Virus record (IMG/VR): IMGVR_UViG_3300029922_000250
Span: 1-28,746 of that record
Source: a virus
Length of the DNA stretch: 28,746 nt
Reading direction: 5' to 3' (one strand)
Shown here piece by piece: positions 1,707 to 28,746 of the stretch (the stretch's first letter is position 1; the number at the start of each line of letters is the position of its first letter). The notes beneath the pieces are model-generated. The model was given only the letters and a program-made list of their open reading frames with translations. It was not told the origin of the DNA and ran no database searches. A program made the position numbers and the translations under genes.

Positions 1707-1886
1707 TTAGAAGGTTATCTCATTAATCATTTTTTCCGCTTCAGATTTAAAATCAGGAAGAAGCAATATTTCCTTTTCCGGTATTTCCAACCTGTCGGCA
1801 AGCTTCTGTATTGAAATGCTGCTCAACATTTTCAATCTGTTAAGCAGGTATTCATTATCCGATATGGGGTTAAAATGGCAGATCAT
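1707..1886 (-). CDS. Small hypothetical protein, possible helix-turn-helix
   Basis: This is a 59-residue protein if the start is the Met at 1886 (MICHFNPISDNEYL); an upstream Met at 1907 would add seven hydrophobic residues and overlap the helicase gene by 38 rather than 17 bases. The segment ISIQKLADRLEIPEKEI resembles a helix-turn-helix (Q-KLA--L-I---I), so DNA binding is possible. It sits between dnaB and the HD phosphohydrolase gene and is probably translated by coupling to the helicase. The start choice is uncertain. Confidence 0.5.
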   Translation of the reverse strand: MICHFNPISDNEYLLNRLKMLSSISIQKLADRLEIPEKEILLLPDFKSEAEKMINEITF

Positions 1887-3369
1887 CTTTAGAGTCAGAA
1901 GGAACATTTACATTAAATGAAATAGTCGGGGCTTGGTAGTTCTGAACAGGTTTTTTAGGTTTCTGGTTAGGGAACGGGTCGTAATTGGCCCAGGTCTGCG
2001 TGCTCATATCGATCGAGTATATAATCTTCCCCTTTTTACCACCCCTATGCTTCACAATGTCGAGTTTGCCGATGCCCTTAAGATCTGGCTGCTTCTTTAT
2101 TTCATCTTCAGTGGGGCGCCAAAGGAAGCCGACAATATCTGCATCCTGTTCTATCGCTCCACTTTCACGTAGATCTGACAACCGGAATTCATTGTTTGTA
2201 CGTTTTTCAATATCTCTATTCAACTGGCATAATGCAATAACAGCGATTTTCAAGGACTTGGCCAACGCCTTTAGCTCGCGGCTGATCTTTGCAATTTCCG
2301 CCTCACGGTTCCTGCTGTCTCCGCTATCCCCTTGCATTAGCTGGAGATAATCGACAATGATCATCCCGATATTGTGCTTGGACTTCATCCTCCGGGCCTT
2401 GGCTCTTAATTCACCAGTGGTTAAAGCGGGTGTATCGTCGAAGAATAAAGGGATTGGTGCAAGGCGCTGGTAACTCTTATCAATCATTATTTGCTCTTCC
2501 CCGGTTCTGGTCTTGGGATAATCCACTAAATAAGTGTCGAGCTTCGTATCAATGGAAATAAGGCGGCGAAGCAGTTCATCATTTTCCATCTCGAGAGAGA
2601 AAAACCCGACCGGCTTCTTATTATTCAATGCAGCATTGTAAGCGATATTCAATGCATGCGCTGTTTTACCTACCGATGGGCGGGCAGCAATGATAATTAA
2701 CTTGCCAGGCTTGAAACCTCCGGTTAAGGAATCGAGATCACCATTACCGGTAGGAATGCCAACAAGGCCTTCAGGCATTAGTAACATTTCCTGGTCCTGC
2801 TCCATTACCTTGTGCACGACCTTATTGATCGGTGAAAAGTCCTTTTTTACGTTTCGGAGTGAAACCTGATAGAGTTCGCTTTCCGCCTTATCGAGCAACT
2901 CAAAAACATCTGTAGTATCTTCATAAGCATCCCCGATAACCTGTCCACTTACACGAATGAGTTCCCGCTGGATGAACTTTTCCATTATTATTCTAGCATG
3001 AGCTTCTACGTGGGCGCCAGTTAGTACAGCCGAACTCAAGTTAGTGAGATAGTGAGCGCCACCGATGAGCTCAAGCTCGTTTGATTTCCTTAATTCCTCA
3101 GTTAGTGTGAGTAGATCTATCGGCATCCCTTTCGTGGAAAGCCTGCCCAATGCTGCATATATTTTTTGATGGGCATCGACATAAAAGCAGCTTTCAGAAG
3201 GTATGATCTCGGTTACCTGTAGAAAGGTATCTCTTTCAATCATGCATGCCGCCAGTACTGCTTCCTCCATATCCGGAGCTTGCGGAGGCACTTTACCAAA
3301 AACAAGTGTAGTAAGATCTGGTTTACGGTTTCGGGTTGAACCCTGTTCCTTTTTTATGTTTACAGCCAT
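1870..3369 (-). CDS. dnaB: Replicative DNA helicase, DnaB family
   Basis: This 499-residue hexameric helicase unwinds DNA at the phage replication fork. The DnaB N-terminal domain (about 30-170) has PPQAPDMEEAVLAACMIE. The RecA-like domain has Walker A ARPSVGKT (229-236), GFFSLEM (255-261), Walker B IIVDYLQLM (337-345), a CQLNR sensor and the DLRESGAIEQDAD box. Length is normal for DnaB. A Pro/Gln/Asn-rich tail ends in SKDDLPF, which resembles the acidic C-terminal tip of single-stranded DNA-binding proteins. The gene starts three bases after the Lin1244-type initiator gene, the usual initiator-helicase pairing in phages. Confidence 0.95.
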   Translation of the reverse strand: MAVNIKKEQGSTRNRKPDLTTLVFGKVPPQAPDMEEAVLAACMIERDTFLQVTEIIPSESCFYVDAHQKIYAALGRLSTKGMPIDLLTLTEELRKSNELELIGGAHYLTNLSSAVLTGAHVEAHARIIMEKFIQRELIRVSGQVIGDAYEDTTDVFELLDKAESELYQVSLRNVKKDFSPINKVVHKVMEQDQEMLLMPEGLVGIPTGNGDLDSLTGGFKPGKLIIIAARPSVGKTAHALNIAYNAALNNKKPVGFFSLEMENDELLRRLISIDTKLDTYLVDYPKTRTGEEQIMIDKSYQRLAPIPLFFDDTPALTTGELRAKARRMKSKHNIGMIIVDYLQLMQGDSGDSRNREAEIAKISRELKALAKSLKIAVIALCQLNRDIEKRTNNEFRLSDLRESGAIEQDADIVGFLWRPTEDEIKKQPDLKGIGKLDIVKHRGGKKGKIIYSIDMSTQTWANYDPFPNQKPKKPVQNYQAPTISFNVNVPSDSKDDLPF

Positions 3370-7574: not shown

Positions 7575-7599
7575 TGCTAATTTATGTTTGGTTAAGAAA

Positions 7600-8286: not shown

Positions 8287-8307
8287 CTGTTTTTGTTTTA
8301 AAATGTG

Positions 8308-9750: not shown

Positions 9751-9784
9751 AAAATAATTTGAATGTTGAGCGATTAAAAAATAT

Positions 9785-10363: not shown

Positions 10364-10365
10364 AA

Positions 10366-12579: not shown

Positions 12580-12612
12580 AAAATTTAATTTTTACTGGTT
12601 AAGAGATTTGAT

Positions 12613-12900
12613 TTATTTTTTGTTTTTGAAAACGGTTTTGATTCCTGGTGCTTTCACAAGGCGAAGAGTTAAGCGATAGACCTTATGCTTACTTACAACT
12701 TCATCATAGTTCTCTAAGGCCCTTTCCAGTTCGCATTTTGTGTCCCATACACCAGCTGCTTGGGAGTTGTATGCAAGTTTCAGGTCCGGGTCTTTCATTT
12801 GACACTCTGATAGCTGCAGGCGTGCGTGGGCATGTTTGAGATCCTTTATTCTCGATAAGAGATATTCCTTGTGCGGATCCTGTTTTTTTTGTTGTGCCAT
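12613..12900 (-). CDS. Small hypothetical helical protein
   Basis: This 95-residue basic protein (MAQQKKQDPHKEYLLSRIKDLKHAHARLQLSE...) has a probable long helix in the first half and a basic C-terminus (KTVFKNKK). It is the last gene before the Sak4-like ATPase, with a 33-nt gap. An alternative frame (12704-12967) overlaps it almost entirely but is less protein-like. Function unknown. Confidence 0.6.
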   Translation of the reverse strand: MAQQKKQDPHKEYLLSRIKDLKHAHARLQLSECQMKDPDLKLAYNSQAAGVWDTKCELERALENYDEVVSKHKVYRLTLRLVKAPGIKTVFKNKK

Positions 12901-12959
12901 TTTGCAGGTTGTTTAGATTTATTAAAAATTTGAAAAACTCTTTTTGTTTGGTCTGTCGC

Positions 12960-13061
12960 TTATTCATATCTGCTCTCTTTTATTACCCCGATGAATATGG
13001 TTAGTAAAAGCACAGCCAATAAGATGTAACCCATCGGCTGGTGATGATATAGCCAACTCAT
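12960..13061 (-). CDS. Membrane micro-protein, 33 aa
   Basis: A short frame from ATG at 13061 to TAA at 12960-12962 encodes 33 residues: a short polar N-terminus (MSWLYHHQPMG), one hydrophobic segment of about 16-18 residues (YILLAVLLLTIFIGVI) and a charged tail (KESRYE). The start overlaps the stop of the 117-residue gene by 4 bases (ATGA), the classic coupling signal, which argues it is translated. It is a single-span membrane peptide. Function unknown; superinfection exclusion or membrane modulation is possible by analogy only. Confidence 0.55.
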   Translation of the reverse strand: MSWLYHHQPMGYILLAVLLLTIFIGVIKESRYE

Positions 13062-13411
13062 AAGTAAGCGGCTTCTGTTTGGTGATTAAAAGGGTGAGAG
13101 CGGTTCTCACGCTTGTTGATGATCTGCGTGAGATACCTTTCGATATGGCTGCTACTGAGACCGGCGAGATAGACTTCAAATGTTATTTCGGCAGATTCAT
13201 CCAGGCTCAGACAAATTGTTACATTGCCATTACTGTCGGAAAGTTGTTCTTTGAGTTCAGAATAACTAACTGTTTTGATGAGGTATTCCGATTCTATATC
13301 GGTGGGAGCGCCCGGGGTGTAACATGAACAAACGAATTCGCTGTTCTTTTTCTCGTGATAGAAATCTACTATCACTTTTGAAGTTTCGTAATTGTTGACT
13401 AAATTTGCCAT
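13058..13411 (-). CDS. Hypothetical early protein
   Basis: This 117-residue protein (MANLVNNYETSKVIVDFYHEKK...) has mixed alpha/beta character and no recognised motif. It is preceded by a distinctive leader: the palindrome CAGTATTTATACTG (13418-13431), the TTAACCA element (13430-13436) and a GC hairpin (13444-13465), so it may be the first gene of a separately regulated unit. It overlaps the next micro-ORF by ATGA. Function unknown. Confidence 0.6.
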   Translation of the reverse strand: MANLVNNYETSKVIVDFYHEKKNSEFVCSCYTPGAPTDIESEYLIKTVSYSELKEQLSDSNGNVTICLSLDESAEITFEVYLAGLSSSHIERYLTQIINKRENRSHPFNHQTEAAYL

Positions 13412-13417
13412 CGGTTT

Positions 13418-13431
13418 CAGTATTTATACTG
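13418..13431. promoter_or_regulatory. 14-bp palindrome upstream of 117-aa gene
   Basis: The sequence CAGTATTTATACTG is an inverted repeat with 6-bp arms and a 2-bp centre, ending 7 nt before the start codon at 13411. Its right end overlaps the TTAACCA element. It could be an operator half-site pair or an RNA structure that affects translation. No protein partner can be named. Confidence 0.35.
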
Positions 13432-13443
13432 GTTAAGAAAATC

Positions 13444-13465
13444 AGCCCTCACGCCAGCGGGGGCT
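13444..13465. terminator. GC hairpin after the 67-aa gene, terminator-like
   Basis: Arms AGCCCTC (13444-13450) and GGGGGCT (13459-13465) pair over 7 bp with one G-U and an 8-nt loop. Rightward it is followed by six Ts, an excellent terminator form. Leftward, the direction of the genes, it starts 3 nt after the 67-residue stop and is followed by GATTTTCTT, a weaker T-tract. In the gene direction it would act as a partial terminator or attenuator of the early operon. Confidence 0.55.
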
Positions 13466-13468
13466 TTT

Positions 13469-13672
13469 TTATTTTTTATTCTTTTTTATAATTGTGCTCA
13501 ACCGCTTTGTATGAAGGTTGGCCCGCTGCTCAGGAGAAAGCCCCCGACGGGGAGGAACTGGAGTGGTTAAGTTCTCCAGTTCCTTTCTCAAACCTGTAGC
13601 ACGTTGAAGCCCGGCTTTGAAATAAGCCTCCAGGCTAATGACCTCATTTAATATCTTGCTCTGATGTTGCAT
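13469..13672 (-). CDS. Small basic hypothetical protein
   Basis: This 67-residue, basic, mostly helical protein (MQHQSKILNEVISLEAYFKAGLQRATGLRKELENL...) has the sequence TTPVPPRRGLSPEQRANLHTKRL and a Lys-rich end. It starts 3 bases after the stop of the 40-residue membrane micro-ORF and is followed by a terminator-like hairpin. No family is recognised; it could be an early regulator or a decoy of host factors. Confidence 0.5.
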   Translation of the reverse strand: MQHQSKILNEVISLEAYFKAGLQRATGLRKELENLTTPVPPRRGLSPEQRANLHTKRLSTIIKKNKK

Positions 13673-13675
13673 TTG

Positions 13676-13798
13676 TTAAAATGTCCGCATTGTTGATATA
13701 GCAAAGAAGGGTACCGCATAAGCGCCCGCAAAACCTATCACGAGTACTATTTCGATTATTAATTTGCAAGTCCGACTTCTGTTAAAATTGTTTTTCAT
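13676..13798 (-). CDS. Membrane micro-protein, 40 aa
   Basis: From ATG at 13798 to TAA at 13676-13678, 40 residues: a basic N-terminus (MKNNFNRSRTCK), a hydrophobic segment (LIIEIVLVIGFAGAYAVPFFAI) with one Glu near its start, and a short STMRTF end. The basic-then-hydrophobic order fits an N-in single-span membrane protein. The next gene starts 3 bases after its stop. It lies directly downstream of the Cro-like gene, the position of early lysis/lysogeny or exclusion genes in other phages, but a function is not shown. Confidence 0.5.
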   Translation of the reverse strand: MKNNFNRSRTCKLIIEIVLVIGFAGAYAVPFFAISTMRTF

Positions 13799-13834
13799 GA
13801 CTATGTGTTTTGGTGATTTGGCACGATTGATGGT

Positions 13835-14050
13835 TTAGGCAACAGGAATGTTTAATAACTCCTTCATATCGTTTAAAAGCCTTTCTGCGACAATGGTCAT
13901 TTTTGCCTGTCCGTTGAGATATCTGTCGACTGTAGCGAGAGACGTGTTGTTATCAACAGCCCACTGCATGCGCATAGCTTTTGTGATTTGCGGAGCTAAT
14001 TCCCTCAGATCCTTATTTAGCTTGGTAAGCTTTTCTGCTATTGTTTCCAT
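13835..14050 (-). CDS. Cro-like small DNA-binding regulator (candidate)
   Basis: This 71-residue protein diverges from the S24 repressor gene, with the 130-bp intergenic region between them holding a perfect inverted repeat. That is the classic position of a cro gene. Its middle has a helix-turn-helix-like segment (MRMQWAVDNNTSLATVDRYLNGQAKM). Role inferred: it would turn down repressor synthesis and favour early gene expression. The family assignment rests on position and this one motif, so it is moderate. Confidence 0.6.
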   Translation of the reverse strand: METIAEKLTKLNKDLRELAPQITKAMRMQWAVDNNTSLATVDRYLNGQAKMTIVAERLLNDMKELLNIPVA

Positions 14051-14108
14051 TTTAAAAATGTTTTATCTTCGTTTGTATTACTTAGTGTTTTACAAATTGC
14101 AGTACAAA

Positions 14109-14138
14109 TATTTGGAGAATTCTACAATTCTCCAAATA
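14109..14138. promoter_or_regulatory. Perfect 13-bp inverted repeat, likely operator of the lysogeny switch
   Basis: Arms TATTTGGAGAATT (14109-14121) and AATTCTCCAAATA (14126-14138) are exact reverse complements around a 4-nt centre (CTAC). The site lies between the divergent Cro-like and S24 repressor genes, 42 nt before the repressor start. Binding there by the repressor or the Cro-like protein would control both promoters. An RNA hairpin is also possible, but no T-run follows directly. Confidence 0.65.
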
Positions 14139-14180
14139 AAAATGTATTTTTTTACAAAATTATTATTTAATAACGCGTAA

Positions 14181-14873
14181 ATGTCTAAAAAAGATTACAC
14201 TGGAGACGGTCTTGTTTTTTATGAACTTGTAAAAAAGAGCCGTAAAACTATTGGTCAGGTGCAGAAAGAGTTGGAGATTTCCAACGGCACTTTATACAAT
14301 TATTACGAATCGGAGGTGCTTTCTGAGGATATTAAAAAGCAAATTAGAGCCTGGGCAATAGAAAATATTGAATCTTCGATTGGAGAAATATTTTTGCCGA
14401 ATGGAGAAAAATCCAAATTAAAAAGGAAAGTACCGGTGATCGGCGAAGGTGCTGCGGGCGATATGCAGATTTATACCAACGAGAATCAGGACCTCGAATA
14501 CATTGATGTAGGTGATCTATTACGTGACTCTGAGGCGGCATTTACCGTATACGGCAATTCAATGACACCCAACTACCCCAGCGGATGCATACTAGGTATA
14601 AAGCGCAACTATGATGGTTTTATACAGCCAGGCGAAACGTATTTGCTTGTAACAAAAAGTAGTAGACTTTTTAAAAGATTATACTACCTAGACGATAAAA
14701 CGGGCTACGAATGTGTTTCCGATAACATGATGATCTACGAATCCGGGCAAAAGAAGGGACAATACATTTATCCTATTTTCCCTGTGAAGTTTGAAGATGT
14801 GATCAGTATATATGATGTTACTGGCATGATTAGGCGAAATAGAAACAGCGATATTATACAAAGACAGAAATAA
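14181..14873 (+). CDS. S24/LexA-type phage repressor (CI-like)
   Basis: This 230-residue protein has an N-terminal helix-turn-helix-like region (about 15-45: SRKTIGQVQKELEISNGTLYNYYES) and a C-terminal S24 peptidase domain. VYGNSMTPNYPSGCIL carries the catalytic Ser127 and LFKRLYY carries Lys165. The self-cleavage site is GEGAAGD (Ala92-Gly93). Such repressors keep the prophage silent and cut themselves when RecA is activated by DNA damage. It is transcribed away from the Cro-like gene across the inverted repeat at 14109-14138. Start at 14181 (MSKKDYTG). Confidence 0.9.
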   Translation: MSKKDYTGDGLVFYELVKKSRKTIGQVQKELEISNGTLYNYYESEVLSEDIKKQIRAWAIENIESSIGEIFLPNGEKSKLKRKVPVIGEGAAGDMQIYTNENQDLEYIDVGDLLRDSEAAFTVYGNSMTPNYPSGCILGIKRNYDGFIQPGETYLLVTKSSRLFKRLYYLDDKTGYECVSDNMMIYESGQKKGQYIYPIFPVKFEDVISIYDVTGMIRRNRNSDIIQRQK

Positions 14874-14884
14874 GCTTAAACTGC

Positions 14885-14905
14885 GTCAAAATTGAAAATT
14901 TTGAC
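14885..14905. promoter_or_regulatory. 9-bp inverted repeat between the two regulator genes
   Basis: Arms GTCAAAATT (14885-14893) and AATTTTGAC (14897-14905) are perfect reverse complements around GAA. It starts 12 nt after the S24 repressor stop and lies about 100 nt upstream of the second XRE gene, so it is a plausible operator for that gene. No T-run follows, so a terminator is unlikely. Tandem ACTCTCTTNT units (about 14920-14940) follow. Confidence 0.45.
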
Positions 14906-15000
14906 AAAGAGACTTGTTTACTCTCTTATACTCTCTTTTATATCTATTATGCGGATTGTTCCGCGGAAATTAATGATTTATACACGGAAAAATTCTCGCG

Positions 15001-15336
15001 ATGGAAAAAAAAGAACATACCGAAGATGTCAGAAAAAGGTTTGTAAAAGCCCTTAAAAAGCTAAATGTCGACATAGATGATTCAACATTTGCGAAGCGAG
15101 TGGGTATCTACCAACAAAATGTTTCTAAAATAAAAAATGGCCAGCGCTATCCTACAGTAGAAACCTTAGTGAATTTGTGTGTGGAGTTCGGGGTGAATCC
15201 GGCGTGGATACTGCTAGGGCGTGGAGATATGTTTGTAAAAGACAGTTCTTTAGAGAAAAGCGCCTTAGACCGATTGAACCGTTTGGAAAAAACTGTAAAA
15301 GAGATGAACGCCGGAAAGCTTAAAAAGAGCGCTTAG
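15001..15336 (+). CDS. XRE-family helix-turn-helix regulator
   Basis: This 111-residue protein has an HTH_3 domain at about 15-75: DDSTFAKRVGIYQQNVSKIKNGQRYPTVETLVNLCVEFGVNPAWILLGRGDMF. The IYQQNVSKIKNG recognition helix and the AWILLGRGDMF end are typical of Bacteroidota XRE proteins. The C-terminus has a Leu-spaced coiled coil (LDRLNRLEKTVKEM) that would make it a dimer. It is encoded after the S24 repressor on the same strand, before the att site, so it probably tunes the lysogeny switch or integrase expression. Confidence 0.85.
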   Translation: MEKKEHTEDVRKRFVKALKKLNVDIDDSTFAKRVGIYQQNVSKIKNGQRYPTVETLVNLCVEFGVNPAWILLGRGDMFVKDSSLEKSALDRLNRLEKTVKEMNAGKLKKSA

Positions 15337-15350
15337 ACAGCTTTTTTGAA

Positions 15351-15372
15351 TCGTTAACAGAAAAGCTAACAT
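15351..15372 (+). repeat. Candidate integrase arm-type sites, left pair (TAACA at 15355 and 15367)
   Basis: TCGTTAACAG (15351-15360) and AGCTAACAT (15364-15372) share TAACA, spaced 12 bp. The same core and the same 12-bp spacing occur in a second pair right of the att core (15581-15603). Paired direct repeats flanking a tRNA-derived core are the usual form of integrase arm sites; function is inferred. Confidence 0.45.
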
Positions 15373-15463
15373 TTTTATCTTTCTGAAGGCCAATACCAAA
15401 TAATTAAAATCATTATAACTGCTACAGAATTGAGATCCGGAATTTGCGATCGATGCTGCCAAC

Positions 15464-15507
15464 GATTGTGGTTCTGAGGGTCGCGGGTTCGACCCCCGTC
15501 ATCCTCC
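15464..15507 (+). other. attP: attP core: 3' half of tRNA-His(GTG)
   Basis: The 44 bases read as the 3' part of tRNA-His: anticodon loop TTGTGGT with GTG, stem strand TCTGA, a 5-nt variable loop, T-arm GCGGG-TTCGACC-CCCGT with one G-U, acceptor strand CATCCTC and C73, the His-specific discriminator. The 5' half of the tRNA is missing; the bases before it (GCTGCCAAC) do not pair. Phage integrases commonly recombine at such tRNA 3' ends, so on insertion the phage copy restores the host gene. It lies 96 bp upstream of the integrase gene. Confidence 0.82.
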
Positions 15508-15509
15508 CT

Positions 15510-15550
15510 ACACCGGAAAGCATTGTAGCAAAGGCTTTCCGGTGTTTTTT
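15510..15550 (+). terminator. Strong intrinsic terminator just after attP core
   Basis: A 12-bp stem (ACACCGGAAAGC with G-CTTTCCGGTGT) and 12-nt loop are followed by six Ts. It starts 3 bases after the tRNA-His end. After integration it would end transcription of the restored tRNA before it reaches the integrase gene. It is among the strongest terminator forms seen in the window. Confidence 0.85.
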
Positions 15551-15580
15551 AAAATTCTCAAACCTGTAGCGATTAGTTAA

Positions 15581-15603
15581 AACACTAACAAAATCGCTAA
15601 CAG
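15581..15603 (+). repeat. Candidate integrase arm-type sites, right pair (TAACA at 15586 and 15598)
   Basis: ACACTAACAA (15581-15590) and TCGCTAACAG (15594-15603) share TAACA at 12-bp spacing, matching the left pair. The last repeat ends one base before the integrase start codon, so integrase binding here could also repress its own gene. A reversed-orientation related word (GCGATTAGTT, 15570-15579) precedes them. Confidence 0.45.
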
Positions 15604-16869
15604 ATGAAGATCAGGTTATTAAACGGCTGCAGTTGCAGCGAACCCGGGGTATATCCTAAAACCTGGGAAAGAAGTAATGCGTCCATTAAAAAAAACTGGT
15701 ATATCCATTACCGGTTTTATGATCCGCTCTTTGCCGAAAGCTATCCAAATGGCTACCAGGTACAGGTAAAGGGCATGAATATTTATAAATCTTTAGCCGA
15801 ACGGCAGGATGCCACAAAGGAATTATTGGCCGGTGAACTCAAACTGCTGAAAGAACAGGCTTATAATCCAATTCCTGGCCAAGCTTCCGAACACTCCGAT
15901 ATAGAAGAGCTTTCGGGCGATTACCCCATTCCTCCTGACACGGGATTGACAAAAGCACTTGAAAGAGGACTGGAACGCCTTGATATAGTAAAATCCTTTA
16001 AGGATGATTTGCTATCTAACCTGAAGTTTATAAAACCTGCCATTGAGCAACTCCGGATGCAGGATCTACCTGTAAAAGATGTACGGCGCCGGCATATAGT
16101 CATGATTCTGGACCGGTGCGGTAAAAACAAAGATATTTGGACAGCAGCCACTTATAACCGGTATCGTAGGAATTTAAGTTGCATATTCCGGGAACTTGTC
16201 AAAATTGAAGCAATTGAGCACAATCCGATAGATGAATACCTCGAGCAGAAAAAACGAACAGAAACCATAAAGGAAATCCTTACAGCCGATGAAATTGAGT
16301 TAATTAACACAAAGCTCCGGGAACTGAACTTTCCCTTTTGGCGGTTCATACATATTTTTTGCAATTCAGGCGCTAGGACTACCGAGATCATGAAGGTAAA
16401 ATTGTCTGAGATAGATCTTAACCGGCAAATGGTACGGTACACTATCAAAAAAGGTAAAAAAATAAGAATCGTTGAGCGCCCGATAAAAGATGAGGTTTTT
16501 TACCTGTGGGAGCAGTTGGCAGTTGAAGCAAAGAAAATCGGAGACAACTGCTATCTTTTTTCTGAGGGATTACGCCCCGGAGAGAATCTTATCCGGACAG
16601 ACCAGATCAAACGGCGCTGGCGTACATGGGTGCAACTTGGATTAAAAATAAAAAAGACCTGGTATTCCCTTAAACACCTCAACACTGATAAAATGGATGA
16701 GCTGTACGGTAATGATATTGCGGCTCATTTGAACCAGCATGATAAAAAAATGGTAGAAGATCACTATGCGGTAGGAAATAAAGCACGAAAGAACGAAGTA
16801 CTTAAGCGGGCCCCGAATCCTCTGGACATTAAGAAAATAGAAAAGGATGCCATTGTCGGCATCCAGTAA
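15604..16869 (+). CDS. int: Tyrosine recombinase, phage integrase
   Basis: This 421-residue site-specific integrase has an N-terminal arm-binding region (about 1-110), a SAM-like core-binding domain (about 125-215) and a catalytic domain (about 220-395). It shows Arg258 (NSGARTTEI), a Lys-rich beta hairpin (IKKGKKIRIVERP), His358 (YSLKHLN), His379 (NQHD) and the nucleophile Tyr388 (DHYAV). The usual box II Arg (H-x-x-R) is Thr361, a feature I associate with Bacteroidota KHT-type integrases. Start at 15604 directly abuts the right arm repeat. It inserts the phage at the tRNA-His gene via the adjacent attP. Confidence 0.93.
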   Translation: MKIRLLNGCSCSEPGVYPKTWERSNASIKKNWYIHYRFYDPLFAESYPNGYQVQVKGMNIYKSLAERQDATKELLAGELKLLKEQAYNPIPGQASEHSDIEELSGDYPIPPDTGLTKALERGLERLDIVKSFKDDLLSNLKFIKPAIEQLRMQDLPVKDVRRRHIVMILDRCGKNKDIWTAATYNRYRRNLSCIFRELVKIEAIEHNPIDEYLEQKKRTETIKEILTADEIELINTKLRELNFPFWRFIHIFCNSGARTTEIMKVKLSEIDLNRQMVRYTIKKGKKIRIVERPIKDEVFYLWEQLAVEAKKIGDNCYLFSEGLRPGENLIRTDQIKRRWRTWVQLGLKIKKTWYSLKHLNTDKMDELYGNDIAAHLNQHDKKMVEDHYAVGNKARKNEVLKRAPNPLDIKKIEKDAIVGIQ

Positions 16870-16935
16870 GTTTCTTCTCCCACAATGTCAAAGAGCTTTC
16901 CCACCCCCCCACGGTTGGGAACAGAGGTTATATCA

Positions 16936-17238
16936 TCAGTGAGACTTCTTAGGCACTGTCTTTTTCTTATGAACGAGCACGGGCCTATTTACCTTATTGA
17001 CAGTATAAAAATGATTGAGATCATCCTGTATGCGGCTTAGCCAGCTTAAAGTGTAAACTGCATTCTTCGGCCGGCCTTGTATCTTATTCAAACAGTCTTG
17101 TATGTTGAATAGGGCTATTTTTGCCTGTATATAGCGAGTGGCCGCACTGTCGTACTTCGCTTTCCAGTAAGAGGTACTATCTTGGCCGCGGGCTGCAAAT
17201 GATACCAGGATCAATGAAAGTAAAAATGATTTTCTCAT
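16936..17238 (-). CDS. Small secreted protein, lysis-cluster end (spanin-like candidate)
   Basis: This 100-residue protein has an N-terminal Sec signal peptide (MRKSFLLSLILVSFAARGQ, cleavage likely before or after Q) and a helical, basic mature part ending in a Lys-rich tail (HKKKTVPKKSH). The start overlaps the endolysin stop by ATGA, so it is co-translated with it. In Gram-negative phages the gene after endolysin often encodes a spanin subunit. There is no lipobox Cys, so an outer-membrane lipoprotein is not supported. Role inferred from position. Confidence 0.6.
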   Translation of the reverse strand: MRKSFLLSLILVSFAARGQDSTSYWKAKYDSAATRYIQAKIALFNIQDCLNKIQGRPKNAVYTLSWLSRIQDDLNHFYTVNKVNRPVLVHKKKTVPKKSH

Positions 17239-17648
17239 ATAGTTGGATTGTTTAAGGCCTCAATAGTTGCGTCGTCCATTACCCCCGTTTGAGGTACACC
17301 GGCGGCGGCTTGTGTTAGCTGTATTGCAGTGGGCACACCTTTTAATACTGCCATATCGAATGTTTCAGCTGCTTCGGTAACATCGTTAATTTCATCCCCA
17401 CGAATAGGATTCCAAAAATCTGCCCGGTAGAAATCAATCATGTCCTGTGTTAGCTCAGGGAATATTTTACCATAAACATAGGTTTGTGTTGTCAGAAATG
17501 CCCAAATAGGTAGTTTAGGGAAATTCTTTTGAGTAGCGCCGCAATATGTCCCTAATGGAGCACCCTCATTACCGGCATCGTTTGGATCTTGTTGCCAGCC
17601 GCCCTCGTGTGTTTTTGTTAATGGGAATACGACTTGTAAATCGGCCAT
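17235..17648 (-). CDS. GH108-type endolysin (lysozyme-like muramidase)
   Basis: This is a 137-residue protein from ATG at 17648 (MADLQVVFPL). It has the family signature THEGGWQQDPNDAGNEGAPLG, where Glu15 of HEGG is the catalytic acid of GH108 lysozymes, then TYCGATQKNF and a C-terminal peptidoglycan-binding-like part. It cuts peptidoglycan to release phage. It has no signal peptide, so it needs a holin. An ATG at 17675 in the same frame would lie in the loop of a hairpin (17662-17691); I chose 17648 because this start puts the catalytic Glu at the usual position. It is coupled to the next gene by ATGA. Confidence 0.8.
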   Translation of the reverse strand: MADLQVVFPLTKTHEGGWQQDPNDAGNEGAPLGTYCGATQKNFPKLPIWAFLTTQTYVYGKIFPELTQDMIDFYRADFWNPIRGDEINDVTEAAETFDMAVLKGVPTAIQLTQAAAGVPQTGVMDDATIEALNNPTI

Positions 17649-17661
17649 TGTAAAATTTTGA

Positions 17662-17691
17662 AATCTCACCGGCATTGCTACCGGTGAGATT
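17662..17691 (-). promoter_or_regulatory. Strong hairpin just before the endolysin gene
   Basis: Perfect 11-bp arms AATCTCACCGG (17662-17672) and CCGGTGAGATT (17681-17691) flank an 8-nt loop. In the gene direction it is followed by TCAAAATTTT, and the endolysin start codon comes 13 nt after it. It could be a weak terminator, an mRNA-end stabiliser or a control of endolysin translation. Confidence 0.6.
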
Positions 17692-17702
17692 GTGATTTAA
17701 TT

Positions 17703-17720
17703 AACCCAAAGCGTTGGGTT
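17703..17720 (-). promoter_or_regulatory. Second hairpin in the same leader
   Basis: Perfect 7-bp arms AACCCAA (17703-17709) and TTGGGTT (17714-17720) flank a 4-nt loop, with AATTAAATC following in the gene direction. It starts 4 nt after the stop of the 151-residue gene. Together with the hairpin at 17662-17691 it forms a two-hairpin leader before the endolysin. Confidence 0.5.
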
Positions 17721-17724
17721 ATCA

Positions 17725-18180
17725 TTATGCTGCATTCAGCCATTCTTTGATACCCAAATAGATTTGGTATTCAACAGCGGTGAGTTTGCTGTTGTTGAGA
17801 TCTGAGAGCACCAGGAGACAGATGTCACGAACAATACCTTTATTCAGCCCGCTCTGGCTCTGAATATCGGTCGCCAACACCTCAAGTTTTCCTTGTAAAG
17901 TTGTCTGAGCATTCACATCGTTGAGGATCTTAGTCCCAACTAATGTATCGGCGATGGCCTTTGTCAGAAAATTTTCTATTTGAGGTATTTCTGAAATCAC
18001 CTCTGCAGGTAGGATTGTCGACAATACCAAGGGCGTGCCTGGACTCTCCAGTACCTTTAAAAATCCCTGTTCGAAGGCGAGTATCGCCCCGGCGTGTGCA
18101 TCAAGGTATAACATACCTGCACCTATTTTTATTTCAATTTTTCCGAGGACTGCGTTAACCTCGTTTTTGAACTTTGACAT
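17725..18180 (-). CDS. Hypothetical late protein in the lysis cluster
   Basis: This 151-residue, mostly helical protein (MSKFKNEVNAVLGKIEIKIGAGML...) has several hydrophobic stretches but no clear transmembrane span or signal peptide. It is rich in Leu/Ile/Ala with many predicted amphipathic helices (FLTKAIADTLVGTKILNDV). It lies between the 30-residue membrane micro-ORF and the endolysin. TTAACCA lies 12 nt before the start. I do not recognise the family. Confidence 0.55.
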   Translation of the reverse strand: MSKFKNEVNAVLGKIEIKIGAGMLYLDAHAGAILAFEQGFLKVLESPGTPLVLSTILPAEVISEIPQIENFLTKAIADTLVGTKILNDVNAQTTLQGKLEVLATDIQSQSGLNKGIVRDICLLVLSDLNNSKLTAVEYQIYLGIKEWLNAA

Positions 18181-18205
18181 AATTTATGTTTTTGGTTAAT
18201 GAATA

Positions 18206-18298
18206 CTATTTGTTCCTTCTTTTGTGATCGAGGTAATGCAGATAGCAACAAAGGGCTACGGCTAATAAGATCACGGCTGTTACGATATATGGATTCAT
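18206..18298 (-). CDS. Membrane micro-protein, 30 aa (lysis cluster)
   Basis: From ATG at 18298 to TAG at 18206-18208, 30 residues: MNPYIVTAVILLAVALCCYL followed by HYLDHKRRNK. One hydrophobic span is followed by a basic tail, so N-out/C-in by the positive-inside rule. The start overlaps the stop of the 119-residue holin candidate as TAATG, indicating coupled translation. Position and form fit a small holin, pinholin or antiholin-type lysis protein; that is inference from context. Confidence 0.6.
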   Translation of the reverse strand: MNPYIVTAVILLAVALCCYLHYLDHKRRNK

Positions 18299-18657
18299 TA
18301 TAAAACAGATTGAGCGATCGGCGCATGAGTGCCATTCTGTACCGCCTGGTTAAGGATAGCTGCCTTGACTTCATCCGGTACAAGGTTTGGATCCGTTGAA
18401 GGCAACTTTGCAACTATACCGCTGCCGGTAAGAAGTGCACTAATAGCTGTAGTAATCACTACAAACTTTGCATGTTGCGGAGCTGTCATAAATGAGAAAA
18501 ACCCACTTTGGTCTAAAGCGATTGCAGTGGCCCATAAAGAAGCAGCAACACCTCCTATCCATTGTATTTTTATAGCCCATTTCGGCGATTTGCTCGTAAA
18601 CCGCTTTAGCCAATATCTGATGCCGGTATAACAAATTTTTTGTTCGATCTGATTCAT
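18298..18657 (-). CDS. Holin candidate, two membrane spans
   Basis: This 119-residue protein has two hydrophobic spans, at about 32-50 (WIGGVAASLWATAIALDQSGFF) and about 64-85 (KFVVITTAISALLTGSGIVA). The basic N-terminus (RYWLKRFTSKSPKWAIK) and small size fit a class II-type holin that makes the membrane hole for the endolysin. It is followed without a gap by a 30-residue membrane peptide. Holin sequence families vary greatly, so this rests on topology and on proximity to the endolysin. Confidence 0.6.
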   Translation of the reverse strand: MNQIEQKICYTGIRYWLKRFTSKSPKWAIKIQWIGGVAASLWATAIALDQSGFFSFMTAPQHAKFVVITTAISALLTGSGIVAKLPSTDPNLVPDEVKAAILNQAVQNGTHAPIAQSVL

Positions 18658-18658
18658 A

Positions 18659-18871
18659 TTAAGCTGCTTTATTTAGTTTGTAAACTTTATCGTAAATGTC
18701 TTTTATCTGCTCGGAGTGTTGCTCGATCTGTATCTTGTGTTCCATGTTTAGGCCGTACATCTCTCTGAGGGTGTGGTTTAGGTTCTTAATGTAACCAATA
18801 CCTACGCCAAGCAGTACGAGAAATATACCACCCATGAAAGTGAGAATGGATCCGACTATTATATTGAACAT
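18659..18871 (-). CDS. Membrane-anchored coiled-coil protein (inner spanin-like candidate)
   Basis: This 70-residue protein has one N-terminal membrane span (MFNIIVGSILTFMGGIFLVLLGVGIGYI) and then a helical coiled-coil region (HKIQIEQHSEQIKDIYDKVYKL). This layout resembles inner-membrane spanins (Rz-like) or hemolysin XhlA-type phage proteins. It ends 1 base before the start of the holin candidate. If it is a spanin, it would bridge to an outer-membrane partner; none with a lipobox is seen here. Function inferred from shape and context. Confidence 0.55.
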   Translation of the reverse strand: MFNIIVGSILTFMGGIFLVLLGVGIGYIKNLNHTLREMYGLNMEHKIQIEQHSEQIKDIYDKVYKLNKAA

Positions 18872-18891
18872 GGCTGTTTTCGTTTGGGTGA

Positions 18892-19344: not shown

Positions 19345-19405
19345 TTTGCTTTTGTTGATTTTATGATTATTAAAAAGGTTACTGATTTGGTGAAAACGTT
19401 TGTTG

Positions 19406-20707: not shown

Positions 20708-20711
20708 TATT

Positions 20712-20966: not shown

Positions 20967-20976
20967 ATTTTTCAGT

Positions 20977-22701: not shown

Positions 22702-23759
22702 ACTATTTCGTTATAGTTTATTACGACGGTGTTGCCATCTACGAAACCACCGCCAGCTGTATTGTCAAAAGTTCCGGCTGAGCTGTCGTAGGAGCAGATG
22801 AAAGGGTCGCTATTGTCAATTTGGATAGTTTGATTCACAATAAGGCCTATCAAGTGCGGAATTGTTAGCGTCATACCGGTTGGATACTGAAGCGGGATCT
22901 GCATGCCATTGCACATGGTATATTTCTGTGACGGATCAGGTGTTTCAACAATTTCCAGTATCAGCTGACAAACTGCAGTCTGTGGAGCTTGTGAAGCGTA
23001 GCCCGGACCATCACCGCAACATCCACGACGTTCATTGCCGTATCCATATCCCCGGCCGTCAAACTGCCAAAGGTTGGGCCCGTTGGGACTTCTATCATCG
23101 TATAATCCTAAAATGATACCGCCTTTGCCCTCTTTATTTATCCCATCGTTCTTTTCTCTCGAGGGAAACAAATTATAAGAGCCCTGTTCACCAATCCATT
23201 TCTTCATGCGGGCGATGAGCGGGTACAAACGTTGCTGGCACATTGTATCGATCTTGTATTCGATATCTTTACGGTCTGCAGTAGCGCTTCCCTGTCCATC
23301 ACTGCTTAATGTCTTGGGATTATTCTGCATCTGGCCTTGCGCTGTTGAACGTGTCCAGGATGGAATGATCGCGCATATGTCTACTGCCTCAGCAATTATT
23401 TTCCACAAAAACCGGTTCCAAAGGTTCTGATAATTGCCAGGGCACATTTCAATGGCATTTACCATCATTCCTATTTGAAGATCTCCAGAGCCGATAGGGT
23501 TTTTCCCTGCGGCAGCTAAAGAAGTATTGATGCTTGCTAGAAGAGCTGTCTGGTTACCCGAGTTAACAACGACGTTCTTTTTATTGATGAAATCCTCATA
23601 AAAAGCATCACTGATTGCCGGCACGATGTAACGCTCTTCAGCTACTTCAATACTGTTCATCAGATATCTTATATCTGCGTTTTCATCTACTACTGCCTTT
23701 GCTAAAACCTCGTCGATGGTGATGAGTACCGGACGGGTCAACCTGTTAATCCTGTACAT
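22698..23759 (-). CDS. Head-tail connector candidate
   Basis: This is a 353-residue protein from ATG at 23759 (MYRINRLTRPVLITIDEVLAKAVVDENAD); an earlier ATG at 23873 would add 38 residues that overlap the portal frame. The N-terminal helical region (LMNSIEVAEERYIVPAISDAFYEDFI) resembles Bacteroidota phage proteins next to portals (DUF6712-like pattern). The C-terminal part has a Gly/Tyr/Cys-rich stretch (GRGYGYGNERRGCCGDGPG) and a beta end. It lies directly downstream of the portal gene (14-bp overlap), the usual position of connector or neck genes. The role is inferred. Confidence 0.55.
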   Translation of the reverse strand: MYRINRLTRPVLITIDEVLAKAVVDENADIRYLMNSIEVAEERYIVPAISDAFYEDFINKKNVVVNSGNQTALLASINTSLAAAGKNPIGSGDLQIGMMVNAIEMCPGNYQNLWNRFLWKIIAEAVDICAIIPSWTRSTAQGQMQNNPKTLSSDGQGSATADRKDIEYKIDTMCQQRLYPLIARMKKWIGEQGSYNLFPSREKNDGINKEGKGGIILGLYDDRSPNGPNLWQFDGRGYGYGNERRGCCGDGPGYASQAPQTAVCQLILEIVETPDPSQKYTMCNGMQIPLQYPTGMTLTIPHLIGLIVNQTIQIDNSDPFICSYDSSAGTFDNTAGGGFVDGNTVVINYNEIV

Positions 23760-25161
23760 CGTCGTTTGATTTTGGCGTATTAGATGGCGCTGGCGCTCCG
23801 CCGGTGCCGATAAATGCACTTCCTTTTTCCCCGCCGATTGGCTTTTGATCGATGATCTCACGACCTTCGTCAACGGTAAGAATATTATTTACATTGATGT
23901 CCCCTAGGAACGACACCGGCTGTATAGCCTTAAGGCCTATTTCCATCCCGCTCCAGCTCGTACCCATCCACTCGTCACATATCATCATCAACTGTTTCAA
24001 AAACTTGTCAATCATTGATTGCTGCTCGGGCATTATCACAGTATTGTTTGCTATATCAAACACCGAACGAATGTATGCGCTGTTACCCTGGCCAAGGCTT
24101 TTCTGTTCACTACCACCTATCAGCAGTTTATTCCATTGATTGGACATGAAGATCTTCTCTGCGTTATGCTTATCTCCTTCTATGAAGCTGCTATCTTGCT
24201 GTTTTGTGAATTCCTTTACTTCCACGCCATCAGCGAGACCGCTTTCACTGGAGAGAATCACCCAGCGGCCACGCTTACCATCACCAGAGTGCTGGTAGAT
24301 AATATCTCGGCCTACCTTCTGAGCCTCTTCAGGTGTCATGGCACCTTTTACAACAATCACCCCACCAATGACAAGATTGTTATCGAAGTTGTCAATGTTA
24401 TAACGGGTGTTTTTATACTCCAGAACTTGCTGTGCCAGGCTACCGATATTGGATGGCATGCCGTAATATTCGTACCCGGGCATTTTGTTCTTTAAATGGA
24501 AAATGGTATGTTCATTGCCATTATCATCTATAGCCCAAGTATTATCAAGGGAATTGGGAGACCAAATAGGAATTTCTTCAGTTTTATTGAGATTCAAACC
24601 CCACATGCCCAGTTTACGGAAATATTTAGAGATATAAACTGTATTGCAGATATCGTCATCATCCGGACAGGATAATCGGCAGTCCATATAGTCACGTAAG
24701 TAAACCCGAACCGTCTTTTTACCGCCAACTTTCACCCGTACAACTTGTATATAACTATTGCCTGAGGTGAACTTGTGGCCGAAAGCGCCATGAATTATAT
24801 CGTTGAGCGTATCCTGCTTCCTGTTGATGCATGCGGACCAGTCTGTAAACTGTTTATCTTCTTTATTATCCTTAAAGAAAACACCTTTACCCAGGCAATA
24901 CCGGGCTTTACTTGATACACATGAATTGGTAGTAGGAGAAAGTAAGCTGGCTTCTGTGAGTAATTGGGAGAAATTGTCTGCAGGGTTTAAAAACGGAACG
25001 TAGCGCTTACCTTTTAAAGAAACAAAAATATTAGAGTTGAACTCGATGGGAATCGGGTTCTTTGGATCTAAGGTAATAGAATTGTTAATGGCTCCTGTGG
25101 TAGCCTTAGCTTTAGGTGCATCGCCTTCTTGAGGCTTTTTTTTGCTATTGGGTTGTGCCAT
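23746..25161 (-). CDS. Portal protein
   Basis: This 471-residue protein has the pattern of PBSX/HK97-type portals: KARYCLGKGVFF near residue 90, HTIFHLKNKMPGYEYYGMPSNIGSLAQ (the HLKN...YYG(I/M)P box) near 220-245, IGGVIVVKGAMTPEEAQ and a helical clip/stem-like region after residue 370. Portals form the 12-subunit ring through which DNA is packaged. It begins 4 bases after a 95-residue gene. In most phages the portal precedes the protease and capsid genes; here it follows the capsid gene. Confidence 0.82.
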   Translation of the reverse strand: MAQPNSKKKPQEGDAPKAKATTGAINNSITLDPKNPIPIEFNSNIFVSLKGKRYVPFLNPADNFSQLLTEASLLSPTTNSCVSSKARYCLGKGVFFKDNKEDKQFTDWSACINRKQDTLNDIIHGAFGHKFTSGNSYIQVVRVKVGGKKTVRVYLRDYMDCRLSCPDDDDICNTVYISKYFRKLGMWGLNLNKTEEIPIWSPNSLDNTWAIDDNGNEHTIFHLKNKMPGYEYYGMPSNIGSLAQQVLEYKNTRYNIDNFDNNLVIGGVIVVKGAMTPEEAQKVGRDIIYQHSGDGKRGRWVILSSESGLADGVEVKEFTKQQDSSFIEGDKHNAEKIFMSNQWNKLLIGGSEQKSLGQGNSAYIRSVFDIANNTVIMPEQQSMIDKFLKQLMMICDEWMGTSWSGMEIGLKAIQPVSFLGDINVNNILTVDEGREIIDQKPIGGEKGSAFIGTGGAPAPSNTPKSNDDVQD

Positions 25162-25165
25162 TTCA

Positions 25166-25453: not shown

Positions 25454-25462
25454 AATAGCTCA

Positions 25463-27636: not shown

Positions 27637-28746
27637 TTAGTCTTGGTGAATGTTCCAGGTGATGCCTTCTGTGTCTGCGATGTCTTCCTTATCAGCTTCA
27701 TTTTTACCGGCGCCGTTTTTAGTTTTGCGTATACTAGACGTACCAAGCTTGTCAGCAACATCGTTTTTCAACTTCTCCAGATCTGTTTTATTAACCAGAT
27801 CCTTTGTCGAATTAGTAATAGCTTCTGTGATATTGGTGGGAACGGTCTTCATCGCTTCCTTAACCGCATTGTTTACTGCAGTTGTGAAAGCATCTCCTTT
27901 GAGGCCTTCTGCAATACCGTTGGTAATGCCCGTAGTGATCTCACTTTCCAATTCCTCAATCGAGGTATTGATGCCATTTGTGAGGGCGGTTTCAAAATCA
28001 GCAAGGTTTATGGTCCCTACTTTGTCGTCCTTTATAAGGCCTGCGTTCTTTAACGCTTCTTTTACGGAGTTGGCAACTGTTTCGCCAATTTTTTTCAGCT
28101 TCATATCTGATTTATTTTTAGGAGACTTGATTGAATTGTTGATTGTGTTGAGGATGGCTTTATTTTGAAAAAACCATTTATCGGCACGAATAGCATTCTT
28201 AATAGCGTTATCCGGCCCGCCGATACAGTCCTCGGGAATGATACCGAGCTTAGCCATATCGGAAGGCTGCCACCAAGTTTCGGCGTTCATCCATGTTGAA
28301 ATTGTTTCCTTAGGCTTACTAAAACAGTTCGCGTATAGGTCACGTGCAGCATTATTGAACTTGCGAATAGAGTTGGCATAAGACTCAATCTCCTCAACTG
28401 ATCCATAAACACCACCCGATGCATTATGGATCATTACAAAACAGTTTTCGCTGAGATGCATATTTTCCGGCTTGCCGGCACGCAAAGGAGAAATAAGCGG
28501 ATAAGTAGCAGCACTGGCAACGATTCCCGTCCCGTATGTATGCCAGTTTTTACCATTGGATATTCCATCGGTAATGAAATCATGCATGGCAAACGCATCT
28601 GCCATCATACCACCGCCTGCGTTAATGTAAATGTTAATGCGTTTAGCATCGGTAGAATTCATTGACTCACGAAGCGACTTGAAAGAAACGCTGGTATCAT
28701 CGCCGAACCAATCCCTGTAAATCTCCTGTGTTGCGGCATCTACAAT
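27637..28746 (-). CDS. ClpP-like head maturation protease with scaffold-like C-terminus (partial, runs off right edge)
   Basis: The frame is open through the right edge, so the N-terminus is missing (visible codons read IVDAATQEIYRDWFGDD...). The Met at 28662 is internal. The ClpP/S14 motifs are clear: INIYINAGGGMMADAFAMHDFI, VASAATY (catalytic Ser) and NCFVMIHNASGGVYG (catalytic His). The C-terminal about 155 residues are helical and Lys/Glu/Asn-rich (KKIGETVANSVKEALKNAG...), like a scaffold. An internal ATG at 28104 (MKLKKIG) could start a separate scaffold form. It processes the capsid during head assembly. Confidence 0.88.
   Translation of the reverse strand: MVDAATQEIYRDWFGDDTSVSFKSLRESMNSTDAKRINIYINAGGGMMADAFAMHDFITDGISNGKNWHTYGTGIVASAATYPLISPLRAGKPENMHLSENCFVMIHNASGGVYGSVEEIESYANSIRKFNNAARDLYANCFSKPKETISTWMNAETWWQPSDMAKLGIIPEDCIGGPDNAIKNAIRADKWFFQNKAILNTINNSIKSPKNKSDMKLKKIGETVANSVKEALKNAGLIKDDKVGTINLADFETALTNGINTSIEELESEITTGITNGIAEGLKGDAFTTAVNNAVKEAMKTVPTNITEAITNSTKDLVNKTDLEKLKNDVADKLGTSSIRKTKNGAGKNEADKEDIADTEGITWNIHQD

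What the first reader, a model, noticed from the sequence alone, without database searches (positions are those of the whole stretch)
15464..15507. An attP with phage genes on both sides: a free or circular phage form
The site holds the 3' half of tRNA-His(GTG) with correct T-arm, acceptor strand and C73, but the preceding bases do not form the tRNA 5' half. In a prophage such a site lies at one end, with host DNA beyond it. Here replication genes lie left and integrase plus head genes lie right, so it reads as unintegrated attP (free phage, episome or circularised assembly). A tandem prophage junction is the alternative.
Basis: partly seen in the sequence, partly recalled or inferred. Interest (0 to 1): 0.55.

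Follow-up and report, generated by a model that had tools for sequence, protein, structure and literature searches.

The report
Phage integration site in uninserted form
The window is a piece of a temperate virus of Bacteroidota bacteria (probably of the family Chitinophagaceae) that carries the second half of a host histidine-tRNA gene as its docking site, and the site is in its uninserted form with virus genes on both sides; this is an ordinary phage feature, though the integrase that would use it belongs to a group with an unusual active site.

Summary
Bases 15464-15507 are an exact 44-base copy of the 3' part (end of the 5' anticodon strand through C73) of tRNA-His(GTG), found intact in five Bacteroidetes MAGs, two titled Chitinophagaceae. 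No 5' half lies to the left. Three comparisons make the site an attP. (1) Pairs of 12-bp-spaced direct repeats flank the core on both sides (15353-15371, 15584-15602); in five related prophages such pairs are split between attR and attL at similar distances. (2) 22 of 28 integrase relatives in host genomes follow an intact tRNA, whereas 37 of 49 in viral contigs follow a T-arm without one. (3) A syntenic integrated relative (G066) has integrase/head genes at one end and DnaB near the other; the window joins those ends at the core. A second record is identical over 19,877 bp across the site. Free circular or concatemeric phage DNA is the likeliest state; a tandem-prophage junction has the same sequence and is not excluded. 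The attP is an ordinary member of a known kind. The integrase clade has Tyr-x-x-Lys where tyrosine recombinases usually have His-x-x-Arg, and a stereotyped attP geometry for which my searches found no description.

The parts
15464..15507 (+). attP core: 44-bp copy of host tRNA-His(GTG), anticodon arm through discriminator C73
   Evidence: exact match to the 3' part of intact tRNA-His in 5 MAGs
15466..15472 (+). anticodon loop TTGTGGT; proposed 7-bp overlap/crossover segment
   Evidence: inference: identity with the host begins 2 bp before it, and the duplicated cores of 5 related prophages also begin in or near the anticodon arm
15353..15371 (+). P-arm pair of direct repeats GTTAACA / GCTAACA, 12 bp apart (candidate integrase arm sites)
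   Evidence: resembles the P' motif more than any of 100 shuffles; pairs at similar distance from the core in attR of 5 related prophages
15584..15602 (+). P'-arm pair of direct repeats ACTAACA / GCTAACA, 12 bp apart, directly before the integrase start codon
   Evidence: 12-bp pairs in 26 of 30 homologous sites
15510..15551 (+). hairpin plus T-run just after the tRNA 3' half; likely terminator carried by the phage for the rebuilt tRNA gene
   Evidence: hosts carry a different hairpin there
15416..15435 (+). left arm of an imperfect inverted repeat (CTGCTACAG) around the core; accessory-protein site possible
   Evidence: 80% complementary to 15556-15575
15556..15575 (+). right arm of the imperfect inverted repeat (CTGTAGCG)
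15604..16869 (+). tyrosine integrase, 421 aa, lambda-Int-like three-domain fold; R258, K283, Y354-x-x-K357, H379, Y388
15001..15336 (+). HTH (Cro/CI-type) regulator, left neighbour of attP
14181..14873 (+). S24-peptidase CI-like repressor
1870..3369 (-). DnaB-like replicative helicase (left, replication side of attP)
   Evidence: its relative lies 11.8 kb from attR in the integrated G066 prophage
23746..25161 (-). portal protein (right, structural side of attP)
27637..28662 (-). head maturation protease (right side)

Best explanation
15464-15507 is the core of attP (POP') of a temperate tailed phage whose attB is the 3' half of tRNA-His(GTG) in a Chitinophagaceae or closely related Bacteroidota host. 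The adjacent integrase (15604-16869) would bind the paired arm repeats on both sides and recombine core with core, most likely within the 7-bp anticodon loop. Integration would put the host 5' half next to the phage's 3' half, terminator and integrase (attL), keeping tRNA-His whole and giving it the phage's terminator; it would leave a 44-bp duplicate at the far, replication-gene end (attR). In this record the two ends are still joined, so the DNA sequenced was most likely free circular or concatemeric phage DNA. Shown by sequence: core identity, repeat pairs on both sides, joined ends, agreement of two records. Inferred: crossover position, integrase binding, physical state of the DNA, host.
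For: Exact 42-base match to intact tRNA-His in 5 MAGs. Repeat pairs on both sides with 12-bp spacing. Five related prophages have a 43-49-bp tRNA duplicate at attR; their repeat pairs start (first matching 7-mer) at -113 to -109 from the core on the attR side and +65 to +81 on the attL side, against -111 and +75 here. A >=7/8 repeat pair at spacing 12 in 26 of 30 sites, about 1.4 expected from shuffles, and in 48 of 54 viral loci. Intact tRNA in 22 of 28 host-genome loci versus a T-arm without ARAGORN tRNA in 37 of 49 viral loci; of those 37, 36 lack a D-arm motif and none has both that and a pairing acceptor strand, while 19 of 23 host loci with a T-arm have both. The integrated, syntenic 48-kb prophage in G066 has integrase and head genes at the attL end and DnaB 11.8 kb from attR; in the window DnaB is 12.1 kb left of the core. 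phi46:1, deposited as complete and circular, has a tRNA 3' half, both repeat pairs and the same layout. Second record G001 is identical over 19,877 bp across the site. Relatives G399 and G404 are permuted.
Against: The record is classed linear and neither it nor G001 closes; an estimated 10-15 kb, probably with the terminase, is missing. No read data, and it is not known whether the two records come from independent samples. None of the 5 tRNA-matching MAGs carries a relative of this integrase at E 1e-5, so no lysogen of this phage was seen. 13 of 33 sites tested (32 half-tRNA viral loci and the window) show no matching P-side pair at p 0.05 in the stretch I scanned; 6 of 28 host loci lack an ARAGORN tRNA; 2 of 7 extended regions gave no attR. 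Integrase binding and activity are untested.
Confidence: 0.88

Rival explanations
1. Junction of two tandem copies of the prophage in a host chromosome. Insertion of a second copy at attL or attR leaves an intact POP' between the copies, so the local sequence equals free attP.
For: Sequence cannot tell the two apart; no circular closure.
Against: No family match to a bacterial housekeeping gene among the 34 window ORFs and 2 ORFs of G001's extension that I scanned, each in at least one library; many had no match at all. Both records show only the joined form. Relatives in viral contigs mostly show the joined form and two examined whole are permuted. Tandem lysogens need an extra event.
Confidence: 0.1
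2. Assembly artefact: the assembler joined two prophage ends through the 44-bp repeat shared by attL and attR.
For: A 44-bp direct repeat can make such a join in short-read assembly graphs (general knowledge); the two records may not be independent.
Against: Two IMG/VR records give the identical 19.9-kb path through the site; phi46:1 has the same junction in a deposited complete circular genome.
Confidence: 0.03
3. A decayed attachment site or remnant that no longer recombines.
For: Activity is untested; no integrase relative in the 5 hosts with the matching tRNA.
Against: Core identical over 44 bp to five hosts, both repeat pairs present, integrase open over 421 aa with the clade's conserved residues.
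Confidence: 0.04
4. The phage is maintained as an episome/plasmid-prophage and the tRNA half is vestigial; the ParB-like protein at 5787-7688 would serve partition.
For: ParB-like protein present; both records show the unintegrated form.
Against: Integrase and attP look intact; relatives with the same integrase type are found integrated; no ParA family was matched by the ORFs scanned.
Confidence: 0.05

Closest known systems
Cellulophaga phage phi46:1 (KC821611, deposited as complete and circular, 34,844 bp)
   Same: Homologous integrase (34% identity), leftward replication genes | HTH gene | tRNA 3' half | integrase | leftward structural genes, paired GTTAACA repeats 12 bp apart on both sides
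   Different: Other tRNA half (anticodon GAA by my reading); its head and tail genes stand in another order by their annotation; no att site among the 54 annotated features
Integrated prophages of genomes of the same family as G002 (G066 tRNA-Met, G168 and G233 tRNA-His, G177 tRNA-Arg, G210 tRNA-Asn)
   Same: Same integrase type, similar repeat-pair geometry, 43-49-bp tRNA duplication; G066 is syntenic with the window
   Different: Integrated (repeat pairs split between attL and attR); other tRNA sequences; window or G001 genes other than the integrase matched at E 1e-4: 11 in G066, 4 in G177, 1 in G168, 0 in G233 and G210
Lambda Int / Tn1549 Int (arm-binding tyrosine recombinases)
   Same: Three-domain fold; lambda Int aligned over model residues 13-402, Z 17.9 (rmsd 8.8, 327 aligned); Tn1549 Int Z 18.1 (rmsd 4.0, 276 aligned)
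   Different: 12-17% identity; His-x-x-Arg replaced by Tyr-x-x-Lys; repeat-pair geometry as described here
tRNA-targeting islands and prophages in general (Islander, PMC4383910, abstract and outline read)
   Same: Element carries the 3' part of the tRNA gene and restores it on integration
   Different: Nothing in principle; different integrase clade and host

Membership tests
Phage attP in a tRNA gene (tyrosine-integrase class) | Core identical to the 3' part of a host tRNA gene | tested here: met
   42-base exact query match; tRNA-His in 5 MAGs
Phage attP in a tRNA gene (tyrosine-integrase class) | No tRNA 5' half at the site (distinguishes attP from attL) | tested here: met
Phage attP in a tRNA gene (tyrosine-integrase class) | Arm-type repeats on both sides of the core | tested here: met
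   repeats present; integrase binding itself not tested
Phage attP in a tRNA gene (tyrosine-integrase class) | Integrase gene next to the site | tested here: met
   15604-16869
Phage attP in a tRNA gene (tyrosine-integrase class) | Recombines with attB in the host | not testable with these tools
   needs an integration assay or lysogen sequencing
Free / circular phage DNA | Ends of the molecule join or are permuted | tested here: inconclusive
   window record linear; relatives permuted and G404 ends join in frame with 1 bp overlap; the window itself does not close
Tyrosine recombinase (RKHRH + Y) | Arg-I, Lys, second His/Trp, Tyr nucleophile | tested here: met
   R258, K283, Y388 in 54 of 54 and H379 in 51 of 54 rows of A2
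Tyrosine recombinase (RKHRH + Y) | His-x-x-Arg (first His and Arg-II) | tested here: not met
   Y354-x-x-K357 in 54 of 54 rows of A2 and 20 of 20 of A1; register from HMMER alignment to 4a8e and lambda Int. Fold and remaining residues place it in the superfamily; it departs at these two positions
IntCTnDOT subgroup | Arg-I weakly conserved or displaced, the rest of the RKHRH pentad preserved (PMC8138268, passages read) | tested here: not met
   Arg-I kept, first His and Arg-II replaced; no tree against CTnDOT integrases was made

The most novel reading that the evidence does not exclude
The integrase represents a widespread, functional clade of Bacteroidota phage integrases that naturally use Tyr-x-x-Lys in place of His-x-x-Arg and read a stereotyped attP: a tRNA 3' half, with pairs of 12-bp-spaced arm sites at about -110 and about +65 to +80 whose sequence changes from phage to phage but mostly agrees between the two arms. 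Such a clade would be a natural experiment on the role of Arg-II and on how an integrase and its arm sites change together while the target moves among tRNA genes.
Probability: 0.6. Interest if true: 0.5.

Novelty: new member of a known kind. Interest (0 to 1): 0.33.

Why it matters
The site points to a host group (Bacteroidota with this tRNA-His; five MAGs in the collection, two titled Chitinophagaceae) for an otherwise hostless metagenomic phage, and shows how attP can be told from attL/attR in one contig by counting arms. The comparison also gives a compact rule (tRNA 3' half, 12-bp paired repeats on both sides, integrase about 100 bp downstream) for mapping att sites of this integrase clade in metagenomes. 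The clade-wide Lys at the Arg-II position bears on a question that the paper I read passages of addresses with Cre and Flp mutants (PMC4499138: Cre R292K is reasonably active; [quoted passage not shown]

Tried and rejected
Tried without result. (a) An integrase relative in the 5 MAGs with the matching tRNA: 0 of 5 at E 1e-5. (b) attR for G180 (60 kb fetched) and G012 (40 kb): no duplicate found. (c) Relatives of the phage-borne tRNA at 8308-8380 in viral contigs: one search used a mistyped pattern and its empty answer means nothing; with a corrected, looser pattern found 0. (d) A single-protein search of viral contigs found only the second record of the same phage. (e) The motif count missed repeat pairs whose letters differ from GTTAACA; replaced by the spacing test. 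One search was wrong (minus-strand loci not turned) and is superseded. (f) Does the arm motif follow the integrase N-terminal domain? Spearman 0.15, Mantel p 0.008, versus 0.07, p 0.12 for the catalytic domain, 56 integrases with a 12-bp pair after dropping those over 85% identical: weak, not relied on. (g) Papers: natural Lys at Arg-II, attP in tRNA genes with arm sites, tRNA-His/Chitinophagaceae prophages, Cellulophaga att sites. Nothing in those listings told of this clade or geometry; this is a statement about those searches only, and most listed papers were not opened.

Rejected: integrated prophage end (attL/attR), because repeat pairs and phage genes lie on both sides; chance similarity; a tRNA gene of the phage's own at this place.

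Limits of the counts. Viral loci include near-duplicates, L064 (the same phage) and L089 (34,844 bp, same length and tRNA half as phi46:1, so probably that phage). In one search five of the 54 (query start at residue 115: L106, L112, L114, L115, L123) have an extrapolated start. 'Half tRNA' means a T-arm 55-260 bp upstream and no ARAGORN tRNA; shuffled sequence shows a T-arm at rate 0.03. Of the 37, L079 has a D-arm motif and 3 others an acceptor-like match (5 expected from shuffles). For L130 and L134 the Arg-II column was not covered, so Lys at Arg-II is 72 of 72 covered out of 74 (the Tyr printed for rows without cover is a leftover of the script). For A2, 64 of the 74 loci were considered; 6 with internal stops were left out and 5 clean ones (L116, L119, L127, L133, L136) were not put in (58 clean, 53 used plus the window). 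In one search, 2 of 30 host loci (L037, L042) were dropped for lack of the integrase N-terminus. In one search, 4 of 37 sites were dropped (no P' pair: L068, L097, L133; no room: L118). Shuffles are single-base shuffles.

Full report
What was checked. The window is a whole IMG/VR virus record of 28,746 bases classed as linear. A 42-base exact query from that stretch has 5 matches in genome contigs; each is the 3' end of an intact tRNA-His(gtg) in a MAG titled Chitinophagaceae (2) or uncultured Bacteroidetes (3). Lined up, host and window agree from the last two bases of the 5' anticodon strand through C73 and part company immediately to the left. ARAGORN, and Rfam at E up to 1, see no tRNA there, and there is no pairing acceptor strand or D-arm motif. 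Downstream the hosts have their own hairpin; the window has a different hairpin plus T-run.

The two sides. Left of the core lie an HTH regulator, an S24 repressor and a leftward replication block (Sak4-like, ParB-like, replication initiation, DnaB). Right of it lie the integrase and a leftward structural block (endolysin, portal, head protease). All 34 window ORFs that I took as genes were scanned in at least one of PHROGs and Pfam; many have no match, and none matches a bacterial housekeeping family. A second IMG/VR record, IMGVR_UViG_3300029908_000131 (G001), equals window 8870-28746 base for base and continues 6.25 kb further into a 1,230-aa protein, read here as the tape measure, and a further large ORF read as a tail protein. 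Those two names, and 'capsid' for 26091-27173, rest on length, position and synteny; PHROGs gave them no functional name. So 15.4 kb to the left and 19.5 kb to the right of the site read as phage DNA.

Why this is attP and not one prophage end. The core is flanked by two pairs of direct repeats, each pair 12 bp apart: GTTAACA/GCTAACA at 15353-15371 and ACTAACA/GCTAACA at 15584-15602. To see what such repeats mean I collected relatives of the integrase. Of 394 genomes of the family of G002 (the MAG of L008), 29 have one at E 1e-20 or better. In the 28 of 30 loci with the integrase N-terminus, 22 have an intact tRNA (His, Arg, Asn, Lys, Met, Val, Phe) ending 91-143 bp upstream on the same strand. 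Of 7 regions that I extended, 5 show a second copy of the tRNA 3' part, 43-49 bp, at 30-54 kb distance (attR), and 2 do not. In those five the phage-side flank of attR carries a 12-bp-spaced repeat pair starting at -113 to -109 from the core, and the phage-side flank of attL one starting at +65 to +81. The letters differ from phage to phage; within one phage the two arms share a motif of five or more letters in four of the five, and agree less in G177. The window's pairs start at -111 and +75. A lone prophage end would have one pair; the window has both.

The spacing is a property of the clade. In the 115 bp before the integrase, 26 of 30 sites (28 host loci, the window, phi46:1) have a pair matching at 7 or 8 of 8 positions at spacing 12; every other spacing from 9 to 19 gives 0 to 2, and shuffles give about 1. 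In viral contigs it is 48 of 54, other spacings at most 4. In 33 sites that could be tested (32 half-tRNA viral loci and the window), 20 have a P-side pair resembling the P' pair at shuffle p 0.05 or less, 18 at 0.01 or less, the window among them; 13 do not.

State of the DNA. Viral contigs with about 230 bp or more before the integrase show a T-arm without ARAGORN tRNA in 37 of 49, an intact tRNA in 5, nothing recognised in 7, the reverse of host genomes. None of the 37 has both a pairing acceptor strand and a D-arm motif, against 19 of 23 host loci with a T-arm and 4 of 4 viral loci with an ARAGORN tRNA and a T-arm. The relative in G066 is integrated and syntenic: tRNA-Met, integrase, portal, putative capsid, protease, tail-like protein, then DnaB 11.8 kb before attR. 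The window has DnaB 12.1 kb left of the core and the structural genes right of it, so it joins the two ends that integration separates. Two relatives in viral contigs, fetched whole, are cut elsewhere: G399 runs from ParB through attP, structural genes and on to DnaB, and G404 is cut in ParB; joining G404's ends with a 1-bp overlap extends the ParB-like match in frame, whereas G399's ends do not join cleanly. A 1-bp overlap alone proves little; the in-frame homology is the evidence. Cellulophaga phage phi46:1, deposited as a complete circular genome, has a tRNA 3' half between the same kind of repeat pairs upstream of a 34%-identical integrase. Free circular or concatemeric DNA is therefore the simplest reading. 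A junction between tandem prophages would have the same sequence, and I cannot exclude it.

Mechanism proposed. Integrase binds arm and core sites, exchanges strands across what is probably the anticodon loop (15466-15472), and the phage enters tRNA-His with the gene rebuilt from a host 5' half and phage 3' half plus phage terminator. Because the P' pair abuts the integrase start codon (15584-15602 against 15604), integrase bound there could limit its own expression; negative autoregulation of tRNA-associated integrase genes is reported in PMC2951348 (abstract and outline read). The crossover position, binding and autoregulation are inference.

The integrase. AlphaFold2 with 54 rows gives mean pLDDT 93. 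Foldseek and VIA-align put lambda Int (aligned over model residues 13-402, Z 17.9, rmsd 8.8) and Tn1549 Int (Z 18.1, rmsd 4.0) at the top. R258, K283 and Y388 are invariant and H379 is in 51 of 54 rows, but the His-x-x-Arg box is Tyr354-x-x-Lys357 in 54 of 54 rows of A2 and 20 of 20 of A1 (the two share the window, and probably phi46:1 as L089), and Lys is there in 72 of 72 viral loci covered. HMMER alignments to 4a8e and lambda Int fix the register. The more distant Riemerella phage RAP44 integrase also reads YSLKH there. PMC8138268 (passages and one section read) treats RKHRH as the pentad and reports departures at Arg-I and the first His; PMC8371274 (passages read) lists Y-x-x-R and K-x-x-R types in archaea; [quoted passage not shown] I did not find this clade told of in the listings.

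Verdict. Observation confirmed; attP interpretation supported; free/circular state likely, not proved. As an attP it is ordinary. The clade behind it is the more interesting part.

Noticed in passing
window 8307-8380 (-): A complete phage-borne tRNA (Rfam tRNA 52.3 bits) to which ARAGORN gives a four-letter anticodon (catg) and no amino acid; the anticodon loop looks one base too long. Could be a degenerate or a frameshift-reading tRNA. The related contig G399 has another unnameable tRNA with a two-letter anticodon (tc) at L139:15282-15354.
   Followed up: partly
window 8434-9750 (-): Protein with a DUF7666 domain followed by many 9-residue repeats (AATNTGDYS / AATNTGSQS) in 27-nt DNA repeats; the second record G001 begins inside this array, probably an assembly break.
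   Followed up: no
window 17235-28662 and L007: Structural genes run, in transcription order, tail-like protein, putative tape measure, protease, putative capsid, portal, others, endolysin: unlike the portal-protease-capsid-tail order that I recall as usual. G399 and G066 keep the order for the genes matched.
   Followed up: no
window 15416-15435 and 15556-15575: GCTACAG/CTGTAGC motifs around the core; a similar TGTAGC lies in the hairpin after the tRNA half, and GCTACAGG..GGGTTTCAG-like stretches recur on the P side of several relatives. Possible accessory-factor site; unexplained.
   Followed up: partly
G177 region (L053-L055 joined), 45960-46418: After attR, tRNA-Arg 3' and 5' fragments repeat about every 138 bp, as if pieces of the tRNA gene had been amplified in tandem.
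   Followed up: no
L012 near its start (- strand): Just downstream of tRNA-His a second, degenerate tRNA 3' end follows the hairpin, a possible scar of another element at the same attB.
   Followed up: no
window 4969-5733 (-) and 1146-1697 (-): HNH_3 endonuclease-domain protein and a phage-type deoxyribonucleoside 5'-monophosphate phosphatase in the replication block.
   Followed up: no
L032 and L034: In two host-genome contigs the integrase has only a tRNA 3' half upstream, so some MAG contigs may be unintegrated phage binned with a host, or attR-like sites.
   Followed up: no
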